A stretch of DNA of 64,000 bases, taken from IMG/VR virus record IMGVR_UViG_3300013102_000030, positions 62,001 to 126,000 of that record. One strand, 5' to 3'. Below, piece by piece: positions 21,998 through 53,391 of the stretch (position 1 is its first letter; each line of letters opens with the position of its first letter). The stretch comes from a virus. The position numbers and the translations under genes are program-made. The notes under the pieces are model-generated. The model saw only the letters and a list, made by a program, of their open reading frames with translations. It was not told the origin of the DNA and made no database searches.

Positions 21998-22070
21998 AGG
22001 TTCGTAGCTCAATTGGTAGAGCGTCGGTCTCCAAAACCGAAGGTTGCAGGTTCAAGTCCTGTCGGGCCTG
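21998..22070 (+). tRNA. tRNA-Trp (CCA)
   Basis: Cloverleaf with acceptor AGGTTCG/CGGGCCT, anticodon CCA at 22031-22033 and T-loop TTCAAGT. The 3' CCA is not encoded. It follows Y element A directly. Confidence 0.93.
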
Positions 22071-22074
22071 CAAG

Positions 22075-34925: not shown

Positions 34926-34996
34926 GCCTCAGGTCTCTGGCGAAGCGCGGTTCTCTCATAAGGAACTGGTAGGTGGTTCGATCCCACCCTGAGGTA
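34926..34996 (+). tRNA. tRNA-Met (CAT)
   Basis: Acceptor GCCTCAG/CTGAGGT, anticodon arm GTTCT-CTCATAA-GGAAC with anticodon CAT, T-loop TTCGATC, short D arm. CAT could be elongator Met or a lysidine-modified Ile tRNA; not resolved. Confidence 0.85.
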
Positions 34997-36548: not shown

Positions 36549-36585
36549 CTTTTTCATGCCCAAAACAAATCAAAGTAAAGGAAAT

Positions 36586-37557
36586 ATGGAACGCCAGCTT
36601 GTCACACTTGAAACTATCTCAGAAATCAACCCCATTCCTGATGCAGACGCTATCGAAGTCGCCAAGGTTCGCGGGTGGAATGTTGTCACTAAGAAGGGCG
36701 AGTTTCAGCCCGGAGACGAAGTCCTCTACTTTGAGATCGATTCTTTCCTTCCCATTTCCGACCCTCGGTTCGCTTTCCTTGAACCACGTGGTGTCCGAGT
36801 ACAGGATGGAGTTACGGGACACGTTCTCAAAACTGTACGCCTTAGAGGCCAGTACTCTCAAGGACTTATCAAACCAGTATCTGAATTTCCTGAGGGACTT
36901 CCGGATATCGTCAAGTTTGACCCTCCCCTTCCCGCAGGTCTTGAAGGTGCAGTAGAAGGCCAGTTCCTCTACCAGTTCGCTCCCAAGACGGATGCAGAGC
37001 GTATTCAGAACCTTGGACGAGTCCTCAATGAGATCCATGAGCACGAGTGGACTGCCACTGAGAAGATCGACGGAACATCTACCACAATCGTCAACGATGG
37101 CGGAACCATCCGGATCTGCTCCCGTAACTGGGAGATCAGCCGCCCCAGCGCACGGTTCGATCTTGCCGACAAGCTGAACCTTGCGGAGATCCTTCCTGTG
37201 GATCACGCGATTCAGGGTGAGTACTTTGGTGAGAACATCCAAGGTAACCCTCTCGGGATCAAGGGCACGGACTTCAAGGCGTTCAACCTCTACCGGAAGA
37301 CCGATAATGGCCCTGTAGCTGTTCCGTTCAATGAGTGGGGCGAAGAGCTTAGCGCTCTACAGGTCCCTGTGCTTCCTCTGACGCTCCCGCAGGCCATCCA
37401 TGAGATTGTGGATCAGGCTGATGGTTTGAAGTCTGTAATCAACCCACAGCGCCTTGCAGAAGGTATTGTGTGGCAGGGACCGAAGGGCTTCCCGTTCTTG
37501 GGTAACCGTCCCGGATTCAAGGCCATCTCCAACAAGTACCTTGCCAAGCAGAAGTAG
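36586..37557 (+). CDS. RNA ligase, Rnl5/DraRnl-like
   Basis: 323 aa from ATG 36586, chosen because TAAAGGA precedes it; ATG 36556 would add 10 residues. The N-terminal about 110 residues are an OB-like domain (VTLETISEINPIPDADAIEVAKVRGW, then GDEVLYFEIDSFLP), as in Deinococcus DraRnl. The nucleotidyltransferase core has EKIDGTSTTI near 160 (motif I, Lys-x-Asp-Gly), QGEYFGENI and EGIVWQGP (motifs IIIa/IV) and FKAISNKYL (motif V). It seals nicks in RNA, plausibly cleaved tRNAs. Confidence 0.88.
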   Translation: MERQLVTLETISEINPIPDADAIEVAKVRGWNVVTKKGEFQPGDEVLYFEIDSFLPISDPRFAFLEPRGVRVQDGVTGHVLKTVRLRGQYSQGLIKPVSEFPEGLPDIVKFDPPLPAGLEGAVEGQFLYQFAPKTDAERIQNLGRVLNEIHEHEWTATEKIDGTSTTIVNDGGTIRICSRNWEISRPSARFDLADKLNLAEILPVDHAIQGEYFGENIQGNPLGIKGTDFKAFNLYRKTDNGPVAVPFNEWGEELSALQVPVLPLTLPQAIHEIVDQADGLKSVINPQRLAEGIVWQGPKGFPFLGNRPGFKAISNKYLAKQK

Positions 37558-42663: not shown

Positions 42664-42861
42664 ATGACAATCGCTACACTGCCAGTAAGGGTGCTCAATG
42701 CATCCTACGAAGACCTAGGACCGACTACGCTAGATCGTGCCATGGCGCTTGTCGAAGTTCAGGGCCGAGCAGAAATCATCATGGTTGACGAAACCAAGAC
42801 CATCCGAACAATGGGCGGACGAGAGTTCTTCCTGCCGAAGATGATTCGACTTCTCACATGA
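42664..42861 (+). CDS. N-terminal half of a split HNH endonuclease
   Basis: 65 aa from ATG 42664, behind GAAAGGA. VRVLNASYEDLGPTTLDRAMALVEVQGRAEII..FFLPKMIRLL matches the N-terminal module of bacterial HNH proteins that in single-chain members leads into the HNH domain. Here it stops (ATGA) exactly where that domain begins in the next frame. It may form a two-chain enzyme with the 42858 product. Confidence 0.7.
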   Translation: MTIATLPVRVLNASYEDLGPTTLDRAMALVEVQGRAEIIMVDETKTIRTMGGREFFLPKMIRLLT

Positions 42862-43178
42862 AAAAGGTTGATGTATATTGGGCACCGAAGACATGGTCCC
42901 GAGAAGGAGTAATCAAGCGAGACGGAGGTATCTGCGGATACTGTCTCAGCAGGAACGGTGACACTGTTGACCACATCCTAGCAAAGGATCTCGGTGGTAA
43001 GGGCGAATGGTTGAACACCATGGCCTGCTGCCTCAAATGCAACGGAGCCAAGTCCAACATGACTCTGGAAGCATGGGGAAAGCCCATCCTCCATGACATG
43101 AGCAAGGAGAGGGCTATCCCGAAGCAAATGTACTACCGGAGTGAATTCTCCAGACGCAAGCGTAAGAAGAACCACTAG
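42858..43178 (+). CDS. HNH endonuclease domain protein
   Basis: 106 aa. Zinc cysteines CGYC near 27-30 and C..CN near 54-58, the catalytic VDHILAKDLGG near 38 and N near 51 form a complete HNH domain. The C-terminus is basic. The ATG overlaps the previous stop, so translation is coupled. It cuts DNA; as a free-standing nuclease it may be a homing-type element or serve packaging or host-DNA degradation. Confidence 0.85.
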   Translation: MKKVDVYWAPKTWSREGVIKRDGGICGYCLSRNGDTVDHILAKDLGGKGEWLNTMACCLKCNGAKSNMTLEAWGKPILHDMSKERAIPKQMYYRSEFSRRKRKKNH

Positions 43179-48051: not shown

Positions 48052-49173
48052 TTGCCTTGGAGCGCTGACGAGAACCGCGAGTGGATTCTCTCCCAGATTT
48101 TACCTTCTGACCACATTCTTGACGTAGGAGCCGGAGCCGGTATCTGGGCTGACCTTCTACGCGGAAAGGGAGTCAGCAAGCGCAACATCCACGCAGTGGA
48201 GATCTTTGAGCCGTACATCTCCCGGTTCGGTCTGGAAGAGAAGTACAGCAAGATCTACCTAGGCGACTTCCAGACGCTGGGAATCCGTACCGATTACTAC
48301 AACGTACTCATCATGGGTGACGTTCTGGAGCACTTCAAGATGGAAGATGCCCTGAAAGTCTGGGAGAAGGCTCGACAGATCGTCGGCCCTCAGGGCATTG
48401 TCCTGCTATCAACCCCCATCATCGACTTCCCGCAGGGTGAGGAAGAGGGGAACATCCACGAAGCACACCTGTCAGCGTTCGACATGGAAGCGCTCAAGGG
48501 CCTCTCAGGAGTCTACGGACACGCTGAGGGTACAATCATCGGCTCTATCGCTGCAAAGGGCGCAGATACGCCTGTAGCGCAGGATCTGAGTGTCCTGATC
48601 ACCACCATCCCGACCCGGTCTGAACTCATGGTGGAGGCTCATCGGAGTGTAATCCAGCAGTCCCTTCTTCCCAAAGAGATCATTGTTCAGGAGGACACCG
48701 AAAGACTAGGAGCGCCCGGCAACCGTGATGCCGGTATCGACAAGGTCAAGACGAAATACGTCGCGCTGCTGGATGACGATGACTACTTCTACCCGGACCA
48801 CTTGGAAACACTATACCAAACTGCGCTTGACACAGATGCAGACATTGTGTATTCTTGGTTCGACGTTGACGGTGGAGAAGACCCCTTCCCGGAGAACTTT
48901 GGAAAGCCTTGGAACCCCAAGAAACCTGTCCAGACGACCGTAACTGTTCTTGCCAAGACCGATGTCATCCGCAAAGCCGGTGGATACACCAACAAATTCG
49001 ATCTGAACATGGATGCTCTGGGTGAAATTGCCCAAGGGAGCACTGCTGGAGAAGATTACCGAATGGTTTTCAATGCCAATTCTCAGGGTGCCAAGATCGT
49101 CCATGTGCCCAAAAAGACATGGGCCTACAGGCATCACGATTCCAACACGTCAGGACACTCTGACCGCTGGTAA
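48052..49173 (+). CDS. Methyltransferase-glycosyltransferase fusion
   Basis: 373 aa. Residues 1-165: SAM methyltransferase (HILDVGAGAGIWADLL motif I, VEIFEPY, NVLIMGDVLEHF). Residues 175-373: GT2-type glycosyltransferase (SVLITTIPTRSELMVEAHRS, EIIVQED, KYVALLDDDDYFYPDHL with the DxD). Both parts look intact. TTG start behind AAGGACC. It may modify a sugar and attach it, perhaps with the epimerase and GT4 enzyme; target unknown. Confidence 0.85.
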   Translation: MPWSADENREWILSQILPSDHILDVGAGAGIWADLLRGKGVSKRNIHAVEIFEPYISRFGLEEKYSKIYLGDFQTLGIRTDYYNVLIMGDVLEHFKMEDALKVWEKARQIVGPQGIVLLSTPIIDFPQGEEEGNIHEAHLSAFDMEALKGLSGVYGHAEGTIIGSIAAKGADTPVAQDLSVLITTIPTRSELMVEAHRSVIQQSLLPKEIIVQEDTERLGAPGNRDAGIDKVKTKYVALLDDDDYFYPDHLETLYQTALDTDADIVYSWFDVDGGEDPFPENFGKPWNPKKPVQTTVTVLAKTDVIRKAGGYTNKFDLNMDALGEIAQGSTAGEDYRMVFNANSQGAKIVHVPKKTWAYRHHDSNTSGHSDRW

Positions 49174-49247: not shown

Positions 49248-49541
49248 ATGACCAAACCAGACTACGCTCTAGAGTACGTCTTTCGACGTAGCCAGTTCAA
49301 CCGTACCATGTGGATTCTTGTCGCTATCTGGGTGGCACTGCGCCTTTGCCGTGCCCTCATTATCCTCACTGTGGGACTCACATGGCTTGCGTCTATCCCT
49401 GCCATGATCATCTTCTGGGGATCAGGTCTCATCTGTGGACTGATCCTTGCCACATACTATGTATACCGCCGCTCCGTGCGTATTGATTCAATCGAGCGCG
49501 AGAGGAGTAACATAGCCAAGCTAAAAGAAAAGGTAAAATGA
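49248..49541 (+). CDS. Membrane protein, 97 aa
   Basis: ATG behind CTGGAG. Two adjacent transmembrane helices (MWILVAIWVALRLCRALIILTVGLTWLASIPAMIIFWGSGL, about residues 20-70), then a charged coiled-coil-like tail. No family recognised. Overlaps the RNA ligase start by 4 bases. Confidence 0.75.
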   Translation: MTKPDYALEYVFRRSQFNRTMWILVAIWVALRLCRALIILTVGLTWLASIPAMIIFWGSGLICGLILATYYVYRRSVRIDSIERERSNIAKLKEKVK

Positions 49542-50311
49542 CCGAAACGTACATCTTTGACCTCATCAATGGTGCAGAGCTTTTCAAGATGCAGCAGGAA
49601 GGCCGCATCAACCGACAGGTTCACCCTAAGCTTCCGATCTCCATCTTCAACTACACAGCCGCAGCACAGTTCAAGAACATCTGGACTGACGCTGAGCGGA
49701 TCTGCCGTGGCTTGATCATTGAGGACGGAACCGGTAAGGTGATTGCCCGTGGACCGTCCAAGTTCATGAACTATGGTGACCCCAAGGCTGCTGAAGTCTC
49801 TCTGGAGGACGAGGTCTGGGTTACCCGGAAGGAAGACGGCTCCCTAGGCATCGGCTGGGAGTACAATGGTGAGTTTGGTGTTGCTACCCGTGGTTCCTTT
49901 GACTCTCCTCAGGCACGACACGCTACGGCCAAGCTGACTGAGGAAGAAAAGCAGGACATCCTGAGTGAGCGCACCAAGGGCCGAACCGCCATCTGGGAGA
50001 TTGTCTACCCTGACAACCGAATTGTCCTAGACTATGGTGATAGGGATGAACTGATCAAGATCGGTGGAGTCCGCAACGATTCCGGCCTCATCTCTTTGCG
50101 CCCTTTCAAGCTCTTCATGTCCATCCGCAAGGGTGGAAATCCCGTGATGACCTTCAAGGAAGCCCTTGAGCTTCCAATTCCGGATGACCAAGAGGGTTAT
50201 GTCATTGACATCCTGAAGGACGGATGGATTCAAGGCCACGTCAAGCTCAAGGGTGAAGCCTACAAGCTTCTTCACGGCCTGCTGACCAACACCAACGCTC
50301 GCCGGATCTGA
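49538..50311 (+). CDS. RNA ligase, Rnl1-like, N-terminal part ending at an in-frame TGA
   Basis: 257 aa. ICRGLIIEDGTGKVIARGPSKFMNY and TRKEDGSLGIGWEY (motif I, Lys of KEDGS) are typical of T4 Rnl1-type ligases; AIWEIVYPDNRIVLDYG, EGYVIDILKDG and HVKLKGEAYKLLHGLL are motifs III-V. The chain stops at TGA 50309-50311 after ARRI, while the same frame continues with ATG and a ligase-like C-terminal region. It may still have catalytic activity alone. Confidence 0.82.
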   Translation: MTETYIFDLINGAELFKMQQEGRINRQVHPKLPISIFNYTAAAQFKNIWTDAERICRGLIIEDGTGKVIARGPSKFMNYGDPKAAEVSLEDEVWVTRKEDGSLGIGWEYNGEFGVATRGSFDSPQARHATAKLTEEEKQDILSERTKGRTAIWEIVYPDNRIVLDYGDRDELIKIGGVRNDSGLISLRPFKLFMSIRKGGNPVMTFKEALELPIPDDQEGYVIDILKDGWIQGHVKLKGEAYKLLHGLLTNTNARRI

Positions 50312-50722
50312 ATGCAGCTTGCGTGGAGGGCATGCAAGGATCTTCTGCCCAACGATCCCAAAGTGATTGCGTTCCGACTCGGAAACGACCCTCGGGACTT
50401 TGAGCGGATTGACACTACCAAGACCATTGAGGAGACCTTCCTTGAGAAGGTTCCCGATGAGTTCTACGGATGGGTGACCAAGCAAATTGACAGCATTGAA
50501 GACAATGTGTACAGTCTTACAGGTCAGGCAAAAGTCCTGATTGACAAGATTGCTGATGTCTCGGACAAGCGTGAGCGCTGGGAAATGGCCAAGGATCACC
50601 CGCTCTGCACTGAGATTCTGAGGGCTAAGAACTCTGAAGACCTCTCCGGATGCACCGTCTTGGCTTGGAAACTGTCCCGTCCGGGTGACGAGACTCCCTT
50701 CAAATCAAAGGAAGAAGACTAA
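50312..50722 (+). CDS. C-terminal part of the Rnl1-like RNA ligase
   Basis: 136 aa, same frame as the preceding ORF, ATG directly after its TGA. FLEKVPDEFYGWVTKQIDSIEDNVYSLTGQAKVLIDKI and the later RWEMAKDHPLCTEIL, CTVLAWKLSRP resemble the helical C-terminal domain of phage Rnl1-like ligases. In single-chain relatives a Trp usually follows the Ile where TGA stands (TGG to TGA). Made by reinitiation (TGAATG), read-through, or not at all if the stop is an error. Confidence 0.7.
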   Translation: MQLAWRACKDLLPNDPKVIAFRLGNDPRDFERIDTTKTIEETFLEKVPDEFYGWVTKQIDSIEDNVYSLTGQAKVLIDKIADVSDKRERWEMAKDHPLCTEILRAKNSEDLSGCTVLAWKLSRPGDETPFKSKEED

Positions 50723-50723
50723 C

Positions 50724-51218
50724 TTGAAGAAACTGATCATTGCCGGTATTGCCGTCGCAGCGCTCGCGCTCACTGGATGTGGGGCCTCCGGCAGTCGCGG
50801 CTTTGAGAGTGACGATTACGACTACGGCGGATACTCCAGCAATGGAGGATGGACCGACTCTGATTGGGACATGGACCGAACAACGGTCTATAACAACAAC
50901 ACGTACTGCCAAGGCGGAACGTACATGCCTCTGGCAAACAACCAGTACTCGTGCAACCGGAACGGAGTCGTCACGGCTCCTCTGGTCCGTCCCAAGCAGA
51001 TCATACCTCCCAAGTCCCAGCAGAAGGCTCCTGCCGACGTTCTGAAGCGAGTGGAGCAGCAGAAGGCTGAACGCCTGAAGCAGCGTCAGGAAGCTGCAAA
51101 GAAAGCTGAGCAGCAGAAGCAGCAACAACAATCACAGAAGAATGCCCCAGCGCAGAAGGCACCGGCTCCCGCCAAGCCTCCTGCTCCTGCAAAGGCTCCT
51201 CCTGCCAAATCCAAGTAG
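50724..51218 (+). CDS. Lipoprotein, 164 aa
   Basis: TTG 50724 is chosen because it gives a full lipoprotein signal: KKLIIAGIAVAALALTGC, lipobox LTGC at 16-19, and AAGGAAGAAG lies upstream. The mature part is Gly/Tyr/Asp-rich with a Cys pair (YCQGG, YSCNR), then a long Lys/Gln/Ala/Pro tail. Probably exported and anchored outside the membrane; phage lipoproteins often block superinfection, which is only a suggestion here. Confidence 0.8.
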   Translation: MKKLIIAGIAVAALALTGCGASGSRGFESDDYDYGGYSSNGGWTDSDWDMDRTTVYNNNTYCQGGTYMPLANNQYSCNRNGVVTAPLVRPKQIIPPKSQQKAPADVLKRVEQQKAERLKQRQEAAKKAEQQKQQQQSQKNAPAQKAPAPAKPPAPAKAPPAKSK

Positions 51219-51227
51219 AAAGAGAAA

Positions 51228-52178
51228 ATGCTAAACCCTAACCAAGAACTTCTGATCCTGCGCGGTTTGCAGGGTTCAGGTAAGACCACCTTCGCCCACC
51301 AGTGGGTAGCTGAAGATCCGGACTGGCGCTTCCGTGTCAACCGGGATGACCTCCGCAAGCAGGGCTACAACATGCTGTGGGGCCTGTCAAACCACATGGA
51401 GGGAACAATCTCCCTCATGGAGGAAGCCTGCGCCAAGGCAGCGCTCGCGGCTGGTTTGTCTGTCGTCATCGACGCAACGAACCTCAAGGCCCGTACCGTG
51501 AAGGAATGGTACGCAGTAGCTGAAAAGGCCGGAGTTCCCGTCCGTGTCCATGACATCGACACTCCTCTTGACATATGCATCGAGAGGGACAAGAATAGGG
51601 AGAAGAAGGTTGGCGAAGATGTCATCCGACGCTACAACGACCGGTTCTTCCAGAAGGGGAAGCTGCCACCGGTTCCCGAGAATGTCAAGAAGGAAGGAGT
51701 TTCTGTGCAAGGCCGAGCTTACGTACCGAATCCTGACCTTCCAAAGGCTATCTGGGTTGACGTTGACGGCACGCTGGCTGAGAGGGTCCATCCCGGAGCC
51801 AACCAGCCTGTCCGTGGACCGTTTGACGAAGACCGAGTGATGGAAGACGCACCGATCCCACACATCGTGGAACTGGTCCGAATCCTTCACGCTGCCGGAT
51901 TCAAGATCGTCATCATGTCCGGACGTACAGATGGATGCAAGGCTCTTACGGAACAGTGGCTCATCGAGCACGCTATCCCGTACGACGACATCTTCATGCG
52001 CCGTACCGTAGAAGATAAGAACCGCAAGGACAACATTGTCAAGCACGACCTCTTCTGGGCGAACGTTGCCCCGAAGTACAATGTGGTCTACGCACTGGAT
52101 GACCGTCAGCAGGTTGTTGACTTCACCCGTGATGTCCTGAAGATCCCTGTGTTGCAGGTAGCTCCCGGACTGTTCTGA
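51228..52178 (+). CDS. Polynucleotide kinase-phosphatase (Pnkp)
   Basis: 316 aa, same order as T4 Pnkp. Kinase: LRGLQGSGKTTFA near 12 (P-loop), VNRDDLR near 38, IDATNLKARTV near 81. Phosphatase (HAD): IWVDVDGTLAE near 178, IVIMSGRTDG near 226, ALDDRQQVVD near 288. It restores 5'-phosphate and 3'-OH ends so the ligases can seal cut tRNA. Lies between the Rnl1-like ligase and the CCA enzyme. Confidence 0.93.
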   Translation: MLNPNQELLILRGLQGSGKTTFAHQWVAEDPDWRFRVNRDDLRKQGYNMLWGLSNHMEGTISLMEEACAKAALAAGLSVVIDATNLKARTVKEWYAVAEKAGVPVRVHDIDTPLDICIERDKNREKKVGEDVIRRYNDRFFQKGKLPPVPENVKKEGVSVQGRAYVPNPDLPKAIWVDVDGTLAERVHPGANQPVRGPFDEDRVMEDAPIPHIVELVRILHAAGFKIVIMSGRTDGCKALTEQWLIEHAIPYDDIFMRRTVEDKNRKDNIVKHDLFWANVAPKYNVVYALDDRQQVVDFTRDVLKIPVLQVAPGLF

Positions 52179-52653: not shown

Positions 52654-53391
52654 TTGATTACTCCACCTGATATCAAGATCTACCTTGTAGGTGGAGCCGT
52701 ACGTGAGATCACCCGTGGATTCCCTGAGAAGGTCAAGGACTGGGATTTTGCTGTGGAGGCTCCGAGCTACGAAGGTATGAAGCAGTGGCTGGATCACAAG
52801 GGCTTTGAGATCTTCGTTGAGACTCCGCAGTACTTCACCATCCGCGCCCGAGCGCCCAAGGGACTCTTCAAGTTCGCTGGAATCGACATGTCACACAAGA
52901 CGTTCGACTTCACGCTCTGCCGCACTGAAGGTGAGTACTCAGACGGACGACGGCCTGATGAAGTCAAGCCCGGAACCCTGCTGGAAGATCTCTCGCGCCG
53001 TGACTTCACGATGAACGCAATGGCGCTGGATTCCCGTGGGACGGTCATAGATCCGTTTGGTGGTCAACAGGACATCAAGGATAAACTGATTCGTCTGGTA
53101 GGTGGTACAGACCGCCTGAAGGAGGACTCCTTGAGGATGCTCCGTGCCATCCGCTTTGCTGTCCAGCTTGACTTTGAGATGGATAATGATGTCTACGCCT
53201 TCCTCTTCAAGGAAGATAATGCAGAACTTCTGAAGAACGTTGACGAAAATCGAATCCGTGATGAACTCACCAAGTGCTTCAAGATCGACACGCTGGAAAC
53301 CCTGTGGATGCTCCAGAGCTTCCCTGCTATTGCGGACAGATGCTTCAGAGGAGACATCTGGCTCATGCCCACCGTCAAGGGAGCTAAGTGA
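52654..53391 (+). CDS. tRNA nucleotidyltransferase (CCA-adding type)
   Basis: 245 aa. Head domain: YLVGGAVREITRG near 10, KDWDFAV (DxD) near 28; then LLEDLSRRDFTMNAMA near 108, DPFGGQQDIKDKLIRLVG and EDSLRMLRAIRFAVQLDF near 156. The tail of bacterial enzymes is missing, as in compact phage forms. It could add CCA, which 30 of the 31 tRNA genes here do not encode. The start is uncertain: TTG 52654 has a cramped binding site, and the frame is open back to a CTG at 52564. Confidence 0.85.
   Translation: MITPPDIKIYLVGGAVREITRGFPEKVKDWDFAVEAPSYEGMKQWLDHKGFEIFVETPQYFTIRARAPKGLFKFAGIDMSHKTFDFTLCRTEGEYSDGRRPDEVKPGTLLEDLSRRDFTMNAMALDSRGTVIDPFGGQQDIKDKLIRLVGGTDRLKEDSLRMLRAIRFAVQLDFEMDNDVYAFLFKEDNAELLKNVDENRIRDELTKCFKIDTLETLWMLQSFPAIADRCFRGDIWLMPTVKGAK

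What the first reader, a model, noticed from the sequence alone, without database searches (positions are those of the whole stretch)
50290..50330. In-frame TGA splits an Rnl1-like RNA ligase
The ORFs 49538-50311 and 50312-50722 are in the same frame, separated only by TGA and followed at once by ATG. The first has the catalytic domain, the second the helical C-terminal domain. In single-chain relatives a Trp usually follows the Ile before the stop, so TGG to TGA is the simplest change. Options: sequence error, real truncation, two-chain enzyme by TGAATG reinitiation, or TGA read-through.
Basis: partly seen in the sequence, partly recalled or inferred. Interest (0 to 1): 0.62.

Follow-up and report, generated by a model that had tools for sequence, protein, structure and literature searches.

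The report
Nonsense codon in phage tRNA-repair ligase
A phage gene for an enzyme that rejoins cut tRNAs carries one stop codon exactly where nearly all its relatives have tryptophan, which most simply makes it a broken or shortened copy, although the layout leaves room for the two halves being made as separate proteins.

Summary
Frame 49538-50722 is one Rnl1-type RNA-ligase gene cut by a single in-frame TGA (50309-50311), with ATG directly after it. All four annotated Arthrobacter phage relatives (Talia1610, Mimi, Racecar, Atuin) have one 386-394 aa chain with TGG at that codon. Of 53 relatives aligned, 47 have Trp there and none is split. The first part keeps the whole nucleotidyltransferase domain (VIA-align Z 22 to T4 Rnl1). 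The second part is an all-helical domain that also folds confidently alone.

Recoding is not supported: TGA ends about 33 of 113 genes, none of 31 tRNAs in the 174-kb contig reads a stop, and the phage tRNA-Trp is not Hirsh-like. The ATG has no Shine-Dalgarno signal above internal ATGs, but ATG follows only 1.8% of codons one step from a stop, and stop-adjacent starts occur in this operon. A second gene (HNH endonuclease) is split at an ATGA overlap here and fused in all six relatives searched.

Best reading: a lineage-specific nonsense allele in a conditionally needed tRNA-repair gene, giving a catalytic-domain-only protein. A two-chain ligase by reinitiation and an assembly error remain open. 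Side observation: the ligase C domain is mosaic at this boundary.

The parts
49538..50311 (+). ORF 1, 257 aa plus TGA: nucleotidyltransferase domain of an Rnl1-type RNA ligase
   Evidence: fold match of model residues 5-248 to T4 Rnl1 residues 0-252, Z 22.0, rmsd 2.9 over 228 residues
49829..49840 (+). KEDG (K98), the KxDG motif I with the lysine expected to be adenylylated; intact
   Evidence: translation; aligned with T4 KEDG; invariant K98, D100, G101 among relatives
50309..50311 (+). in-frame TGA; TGG (Trp258) in Talia1610, Mimi, Racecar, Atuin and L040-L043
50312..50722 (+). ORF 2, 136 aa, starting ATG directly after the TGA: all-helical C-terminal domain of the same ligase
   Evidence: folds alone with pLDDT 88, pTM 0.79
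49248..49541 (+). upstream small gene; its TGA overlaps the ligase ATG as ATGA
   Evidence: called membrane protein in relatives
50724..51218 (+). downstream small gene starting TTG one base after the ligase TAA (TAATTG, directly adjacent, in L042 and L043)
51228..52178 (+). polynucleotide kinase/phosphatase, intact, the usual partner in tRNA repair
   Evidence: Pfam AAA_33 3e-25 and HAD_PNKP 4e-39
52654..53391 (+). tRNA nucleotidyltransferase, intact
   Evidence: Pfam PolyA_pol 4e-23; same neighbour in relatives
36556..37557 (+). second, intact RNA ligase of another family (PHA02142 OB-fold plus RNA_ligase), possible backup
   Evidence: 86-88% identical in two of six relatives searched, not found in Atuin
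21998..22071 (+). phage tRNA-Trp(CCA), the most likely near-cognate reader if the TGA is ever read through; D arm GCTC/GAGC, so not Hirsh-like

Best explanation
The gene is an ordinary single-chain Rnl1-type tRNA-repair ligase in which a nearly invariant Trp codon has become TGA in this one phage lineage. Translation normally stops there and gives a 257-aa protein with the complete nucleotidyltransferase domain but without the helical C-terminal domain. It is probably still able to bind ATP and perhaps to seal RNA, with lost or changed tRNA selectivity (inferred from T4 Rnl1). The C-terminal ORF is intact because the change is recent, or because some of it is still made by occasional reinitiation at the adjacent ATG or by low-level UGA misreading. 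The lesion is tolerable because phage tRNA repair is needed only in hosts that cut tRNA, and this phage carries a second intact RNA ligase. Shown: the TGA, Trp in relatives, intact domains and neighbours, normal use of TGA as a stop. Inferred: that the base is real in the phage, the activity of the fragment, and why it is tolerated.
For: Four annotated relatives and 43 more aligned sequences have Trp there and none of 53 is split. The ligase is the only mid-gene stop in about 103 kb aligned, and TGA is an ordinary stop at about 33 of 113 gene ends. No stop-reading tRNA was found. SD pairing at the new ATG equals the median of internal ATGs (-3.3 kcal/mol; median of gene starts -4.7). Second RNA ligase present. 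T4 mutants lacking Pnk or RNA ligase 1 grow normally on laboratory strains (PMC3014915). RLIG1 of Yasminevirus lacks the RNA-binding domain of T4 Rnl1 and still ligates tRNA (PMC11494293).
Against: ATG follows a codon one step from a stop in only 1.8% of cases in this genome, and here it does so exactly at the domain boundary. The C-terminal part shows no excess of changes at conserved sites (36 of 40 kept; N part 103 of 109), so no decay is visible. A second gene of the same contig is split at a domain boundary with an ATGA overlap. No reads or sister isolates were available.
Confidence: 0.52

Rival explanations
1. Two-chain ligase: ribosomes that stop at the UGA restart at the directly adjacent AUG, so the catalytic domain and the helical RNA-binding domain are made as separate subunits and assemble.
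For: UGA AUG leaves no gap, and coupling is strongest at overlaps or very short distances (PMC10666635). The start codon occurs there in only 1.8% of comparable positions. The C fragment is predicted to fold alone (pLDDT 88), and the cut lies at the start of the first C-domain helix (254-266), just after the loop that follows helix 240-251. The operon uses stop-adjacent starts: ATGA at 49538; TAATTG after the ligase in L042 and L043; Atuin gene 174 starts one base after the end of gene 173. The HNH gene of the same contig is split with an ATGA overlap. Conserved sites of the C part are kept.
Against: No SD above background, and removing the SD substantially lowered reinitiation in 4 of 5 E. 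coli pairs tested (PMC6728339). The geometry is not the common -4 or -1 overlap. The nearly invariant Trp is lost and the first helix of the C domain is cut. No relative is split.
Confidence: 0.2
2. Sequence or assembly error, or a minor variant picked by the assembler, in a metagenome contig; the phage gene is intact.
For: IMG/VR record without reads or isolate. A single base in an otherwise conserved codon. A second gene (HNH) differs by a one-base frame change relative to Atuin, as two errors would.
Against: Substitution errors are rare in a covered consensus (general knowledge). No other mid-gene stop in about 103 kb aligned. Both breaks fall at domain boundaries and both leave an ATG at the stop, which random errors would rarely do.
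Confidence: 0.23
3. Programmed or tolerated read-through of the TGA, with Trp or another residue inserted, making the full-length ligase.
For: Trp is ancestral at the site and the phage encodes its own tRNA-Trp(CCA), a known near-cognate reader of UGA (general knowledge).
Against: TGA is a normal stop elsewhere. No UCA-anticodon tRNA, and tRNA-Trp has G24, not the Hirsh A24. No unusual RNA structure follows the TGA (z 0.33, 0.27 and -0.70). No relative has TGA there.
Confidence: 0.05

Closest known systems
RNA ligase of Arthrobacter phages Talia1610, Mimi, Racecar (gp180/181) and Atuin (gp173)
   Same: Orthologue at the same place, with the same neighbours (membrane protein, small protein, polynucleotide kinase, tRNA nucleotidyltransferase); 55-62% identity in the N domain, 43-72% in the C domain
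   Different: One chain of 386-394 aa with TGG (Trp) at the codon that is TGA here
T4 RNA ligase 1 (Rnl1; PDB 2c5u, 5tt6, 9do4)
   Same: Nucleotidyltransferase fold and KxDG motif; Z 22.0, rmsd 2.9 over 228 residues; an all-helical C-terminal part follows; acts with a polynucleotide kinase
   Different: T4 Rnl1 is one chain. Relation of the C domain to T4's could not be shown by sequence or fold
RLIG1 (C12orf29) and its viral homologues
   Same: 5'-3' RNA ligase with a nucleotidyltransferase domain and no Rnl1-type RNA-binding domain, as the first fragment here would be (PMC11494293)
   Different: A separate family that lacks the domain throughout, not a truncated Rnl1
Gene pairs coupled by termination-reinitiation (ATGA, TGATG)
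   Same: Stop and start touch, so reinitiation is possible in principle (PMC6728339, PMC10666635)
   Different: Here the distance is 0 in the same frame, without an SD above background, and arose inside one gene

Membership tests
Rnl1-type RNA ligase (PF09511, T4 Rnl1) | nucleotidyltransferase fold with KxDG and downstream motifs | tested here: met
   PF09511 44 bits, cut-off 28.3; KEDG at K98-G101, EGYV and HVKLKG present; Z 22.0 to 2c5u
Rnl1-type RNA ligase (PF09511, T4 Rnl1) | helical C-terminal domain on the same chain | tested here: not met
   A helical domain is encoded next in frame, but TGA separates it; in all 53 relatives aligned the chain runs on past this point
Rnl1-type RNA ligase (PF09511, T4 Rnl1) | C-terminal domain homologous to that of T4 Rnl1 | tested here: inconclusive
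   profile search matches T4 only to residue 253; C domain alone: best Foldseek E 1.7, best Z 4.2, all unrelated
Rnl1-type RNA ligase (PF09511, T4 Rnl1) | seals tRNA cut in the anticodon loop | not testable with these tools
   only context: PNKP, tRNA nucleotidyltransferase and 31 tRNA genes in the contig
Stop-codon recoding (TGA read as an amino acid) | TGA avoided as a stop, several in-frame TGA, a matching tRNA | tested here: not met
   about 33 of 113 gene ends are TGA; a single in-frame case; no stop-reading tRNA
Termination-reinitiation gene pair | start overlapping or within a few bases of the stop | tested here: met
   TGAATG, distance 0
Termination-reinitiation gene pair | SD motif before the downstream start (present in most such pairs, not essential) | tested here: not met
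   -3.3 kcal/mol, the median of internal ATGs; 52% of 560 internal ATGs are as strong or stronger
Termination-reinitiation gene pair | downstream product made and dependent on upstream translation | not testable with these tools
   needs proteomics, ribosome profiling or reporters

The most novel reading that the evidence does not exclude
A two-subunit Rnl1: the tRNA-recognition domain is detached from the catalytic domain by a point mutation and supplied in trans by UGAAUG reinitiation, in a phage group whose ligases already exchange this domain by recombination near the same boundary.
Probability: 0.18. Interest if true: 0.55.

Novelty: new member of a known kind. Interest (0 to 1): 0.27.

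Why it matters
If the split is real and both parts are made, it gives a natural separation-of-function form of a widely used ligase family and a test of whether the tRNA-selecting domain can work in trans. If it is a plain nonsense allele, it shows loss of tRNA repair in a phage that keeps a second RNA ligase, which bears on which host tRNA-cutting defences the phage meets. If it is an assembly error, it is a caution for calling recoding from single contigs.

Tried and rejected
Genome-wide TGA recoding: rejected, TGA is a normal stop. Suppressor tRNA: none among the tRNAs found; the weak extra Rfam hit at 34926-34996 reads as a Met anticodon, CAT, by eye. Hirsh-type tRNA-Trp: position 24 is G. 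Stimulatory RNA structure: no. Decay of the C part: not detected, conserved sites are kept as well as in controls; synonymous sites are near saturation, so dN/dS with distant relatives says little. A fold relation of the C domain to T4's: none found. The first six-frame lesion scan was full of shadow-frame hits and was redone. The key paper on T4 Rnl1 truncation (Wang et al. 2007, RNA 13:1235) is not held, so its content was used only from its title, as cited in PMC11494293, and from memory.

Full report
What is there. The window is part of a 174,136-base virus record related to Arthrobacter phages Atuin, Racecar, Mimi and Talia1610. Frame 49538-50722 reads 257 codons, TGA, then 136 codons from an ATG directly after it. 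The first part is a nucleotidyltransferase of the Rnl1 type. The second part matches no family on its own, but matches the C-terminal part of the same ligase in the four annotated relatives. There the gene is one chain of 386-394 aa and the codon is TGG in all four.

Wider family. A profile of the N part found 45 IMG/VR loci. Together with eight annotated phage copies they give 53 relatives: 47 have Trp in this column, the others I, V, L or Y, and none is split near the boundary. The IMG/VR copies are 313-404 aa long. Met follows the column only in the window; close relatives have V, I or T.

Structure. A model of the chain with the TGA read as Trp (mean pLDDT 86) aligns over residues 5-248 with T4 Rnl1 (Z 22.0, rmsd 2.9 over 228 residues), so fragment 1 holds the complete catalytic domain. 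Trp258 lies near the start of helix 254-266, the first helix of the C-terminal domain, after a short loop that follows helix 240-251. The C fragment alone is predicted as an all-helical domain (pLDDT 88). It has no convincing match in the PDB, so its relation to T4's C domain is not shown.

Recoding and read-through. Of 113 gene ends inferred from homologues, 50 are TAA, 33 TGA and 30 TAG; a few of these may come from shadow frames, but TGA is clearly a normal stop. The ligase is the only mid-gene stop in about 103 kb of alignments. ARAGORN finds 30 tRNAs in the window and none elsewhere. One further weak Rfam hit reads as a Met anticodon by eye. The phage tRNA-Trp has G24. RNA after the TGA folds no better than shuffles.

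Reinitiation. The ATG has SD pairing of -3.3 kcal/mol. The median is -4.7 for 81 inferred gene starts and -3.3 for 560 internal ATGs, so there is no start signal above background. Yet ATG follows only 1.8% of codons one step from a stop, and 10 of 547 TGG codons. The operon is tightly packed: the ligase ATG overlaps the upstream TGA, and in L042 and L043 the next gene starts TTG directly after the ligase TAA, with GAGGA before it. Published work finds that coupling needs overlaps or very short distances (PMC10666635), and that removing the SD lowered reinitiation in 4 of 5 E. coli pairs (PMC6728339).

A second split. An HNH endonuclease gene, fused and open in all six relatives searched, is two ORFs here, 42664-42861 and 42858-43178, joined by an ATGA overlap. 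Two domain-boundary splits in one contig, both with ATG at the stop, mildly favour tolerated or selected splitting over random error; two breaks in one contig also fit two errors. I cannot separate these.

Mosaic ligase. The window's N domain is 60-64% identical to Talia1610 and L040-L043 but 55% to Atuin, while its C domain is 72% identical to Atuin and 44-53% to the others. The C-domain tree joins window and Atuin with support 100/99, and the join of window with L040 is rejected (p 6e-9). The N-domain tree does not resolve, and joining window with Atuin there is not rejected (p 0.11). So exchange of the C domain is likely but only half proven. L042 and L043 show a similar drop after the boundary (N-domain dN 0.016, C-domain dN 0.17), within a generally mosaic region.

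Function and tolerance. The neighbours are PNKP and tRNA nucleotidyltransferase, the setting of phage tRNA repair. T4 mutants lacking Pnk or RNA ligase 1 grow normally on laboratory strains and are restricted on hosts with the anticodon nuclease PrrC (PMC3014915). This phage also has an intact second RNA ligase at 36556-37557, 86-88% identical in Talia1610 and G001 and not found in Atuin. Loss of Rnl1 selectivity could therefore be tolerated; that step is inference.

Verdict. A single lineage-specific TGG-to-TGA change in a conserved tRNA-repair ligase, most likely a real nonsense allele that leaves a catalytic-domain protein (0.52). Assembly error or minor variant 0.23, two-chain enzyme by reinitiation about 0.2, read-through 0.05.

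Noticed in passing
42664-42861 and 42858-43178: HNH endonuclease gene split into two ORFs by a one-base frame change with an ATGA overlap; fused and open in six relatives.
   Followed up: partly
49538-50722, with L042 and L043: The ligase C domain has a different history from the N domain (closest to Atuin), with the change of affinity within about ten codons of the TGA; L042 and L043 show a similar drop after the boundary.
   Followed up: partly
36556-37557: Second RNA ligase (PHA02142 OB-fold plus RNA_ligase), 86-88% identical in two relatives, where other proteins of the region are about 40-77% identical; not found in Atuin and three other records, two of them fragments.
   Followed up: partly
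34926-34996: tRNA-like sequence with a CAT anticodon by eye, found by Rfam below its cut-off and missed by ARAGORN.
   Followed up: no
48052-49170: One ORF combines a methyltransferase and a family 2 glycosyltransferase domain; the best match in Racecar spans the whole, in Atuin only the second half.
   Followed up: no
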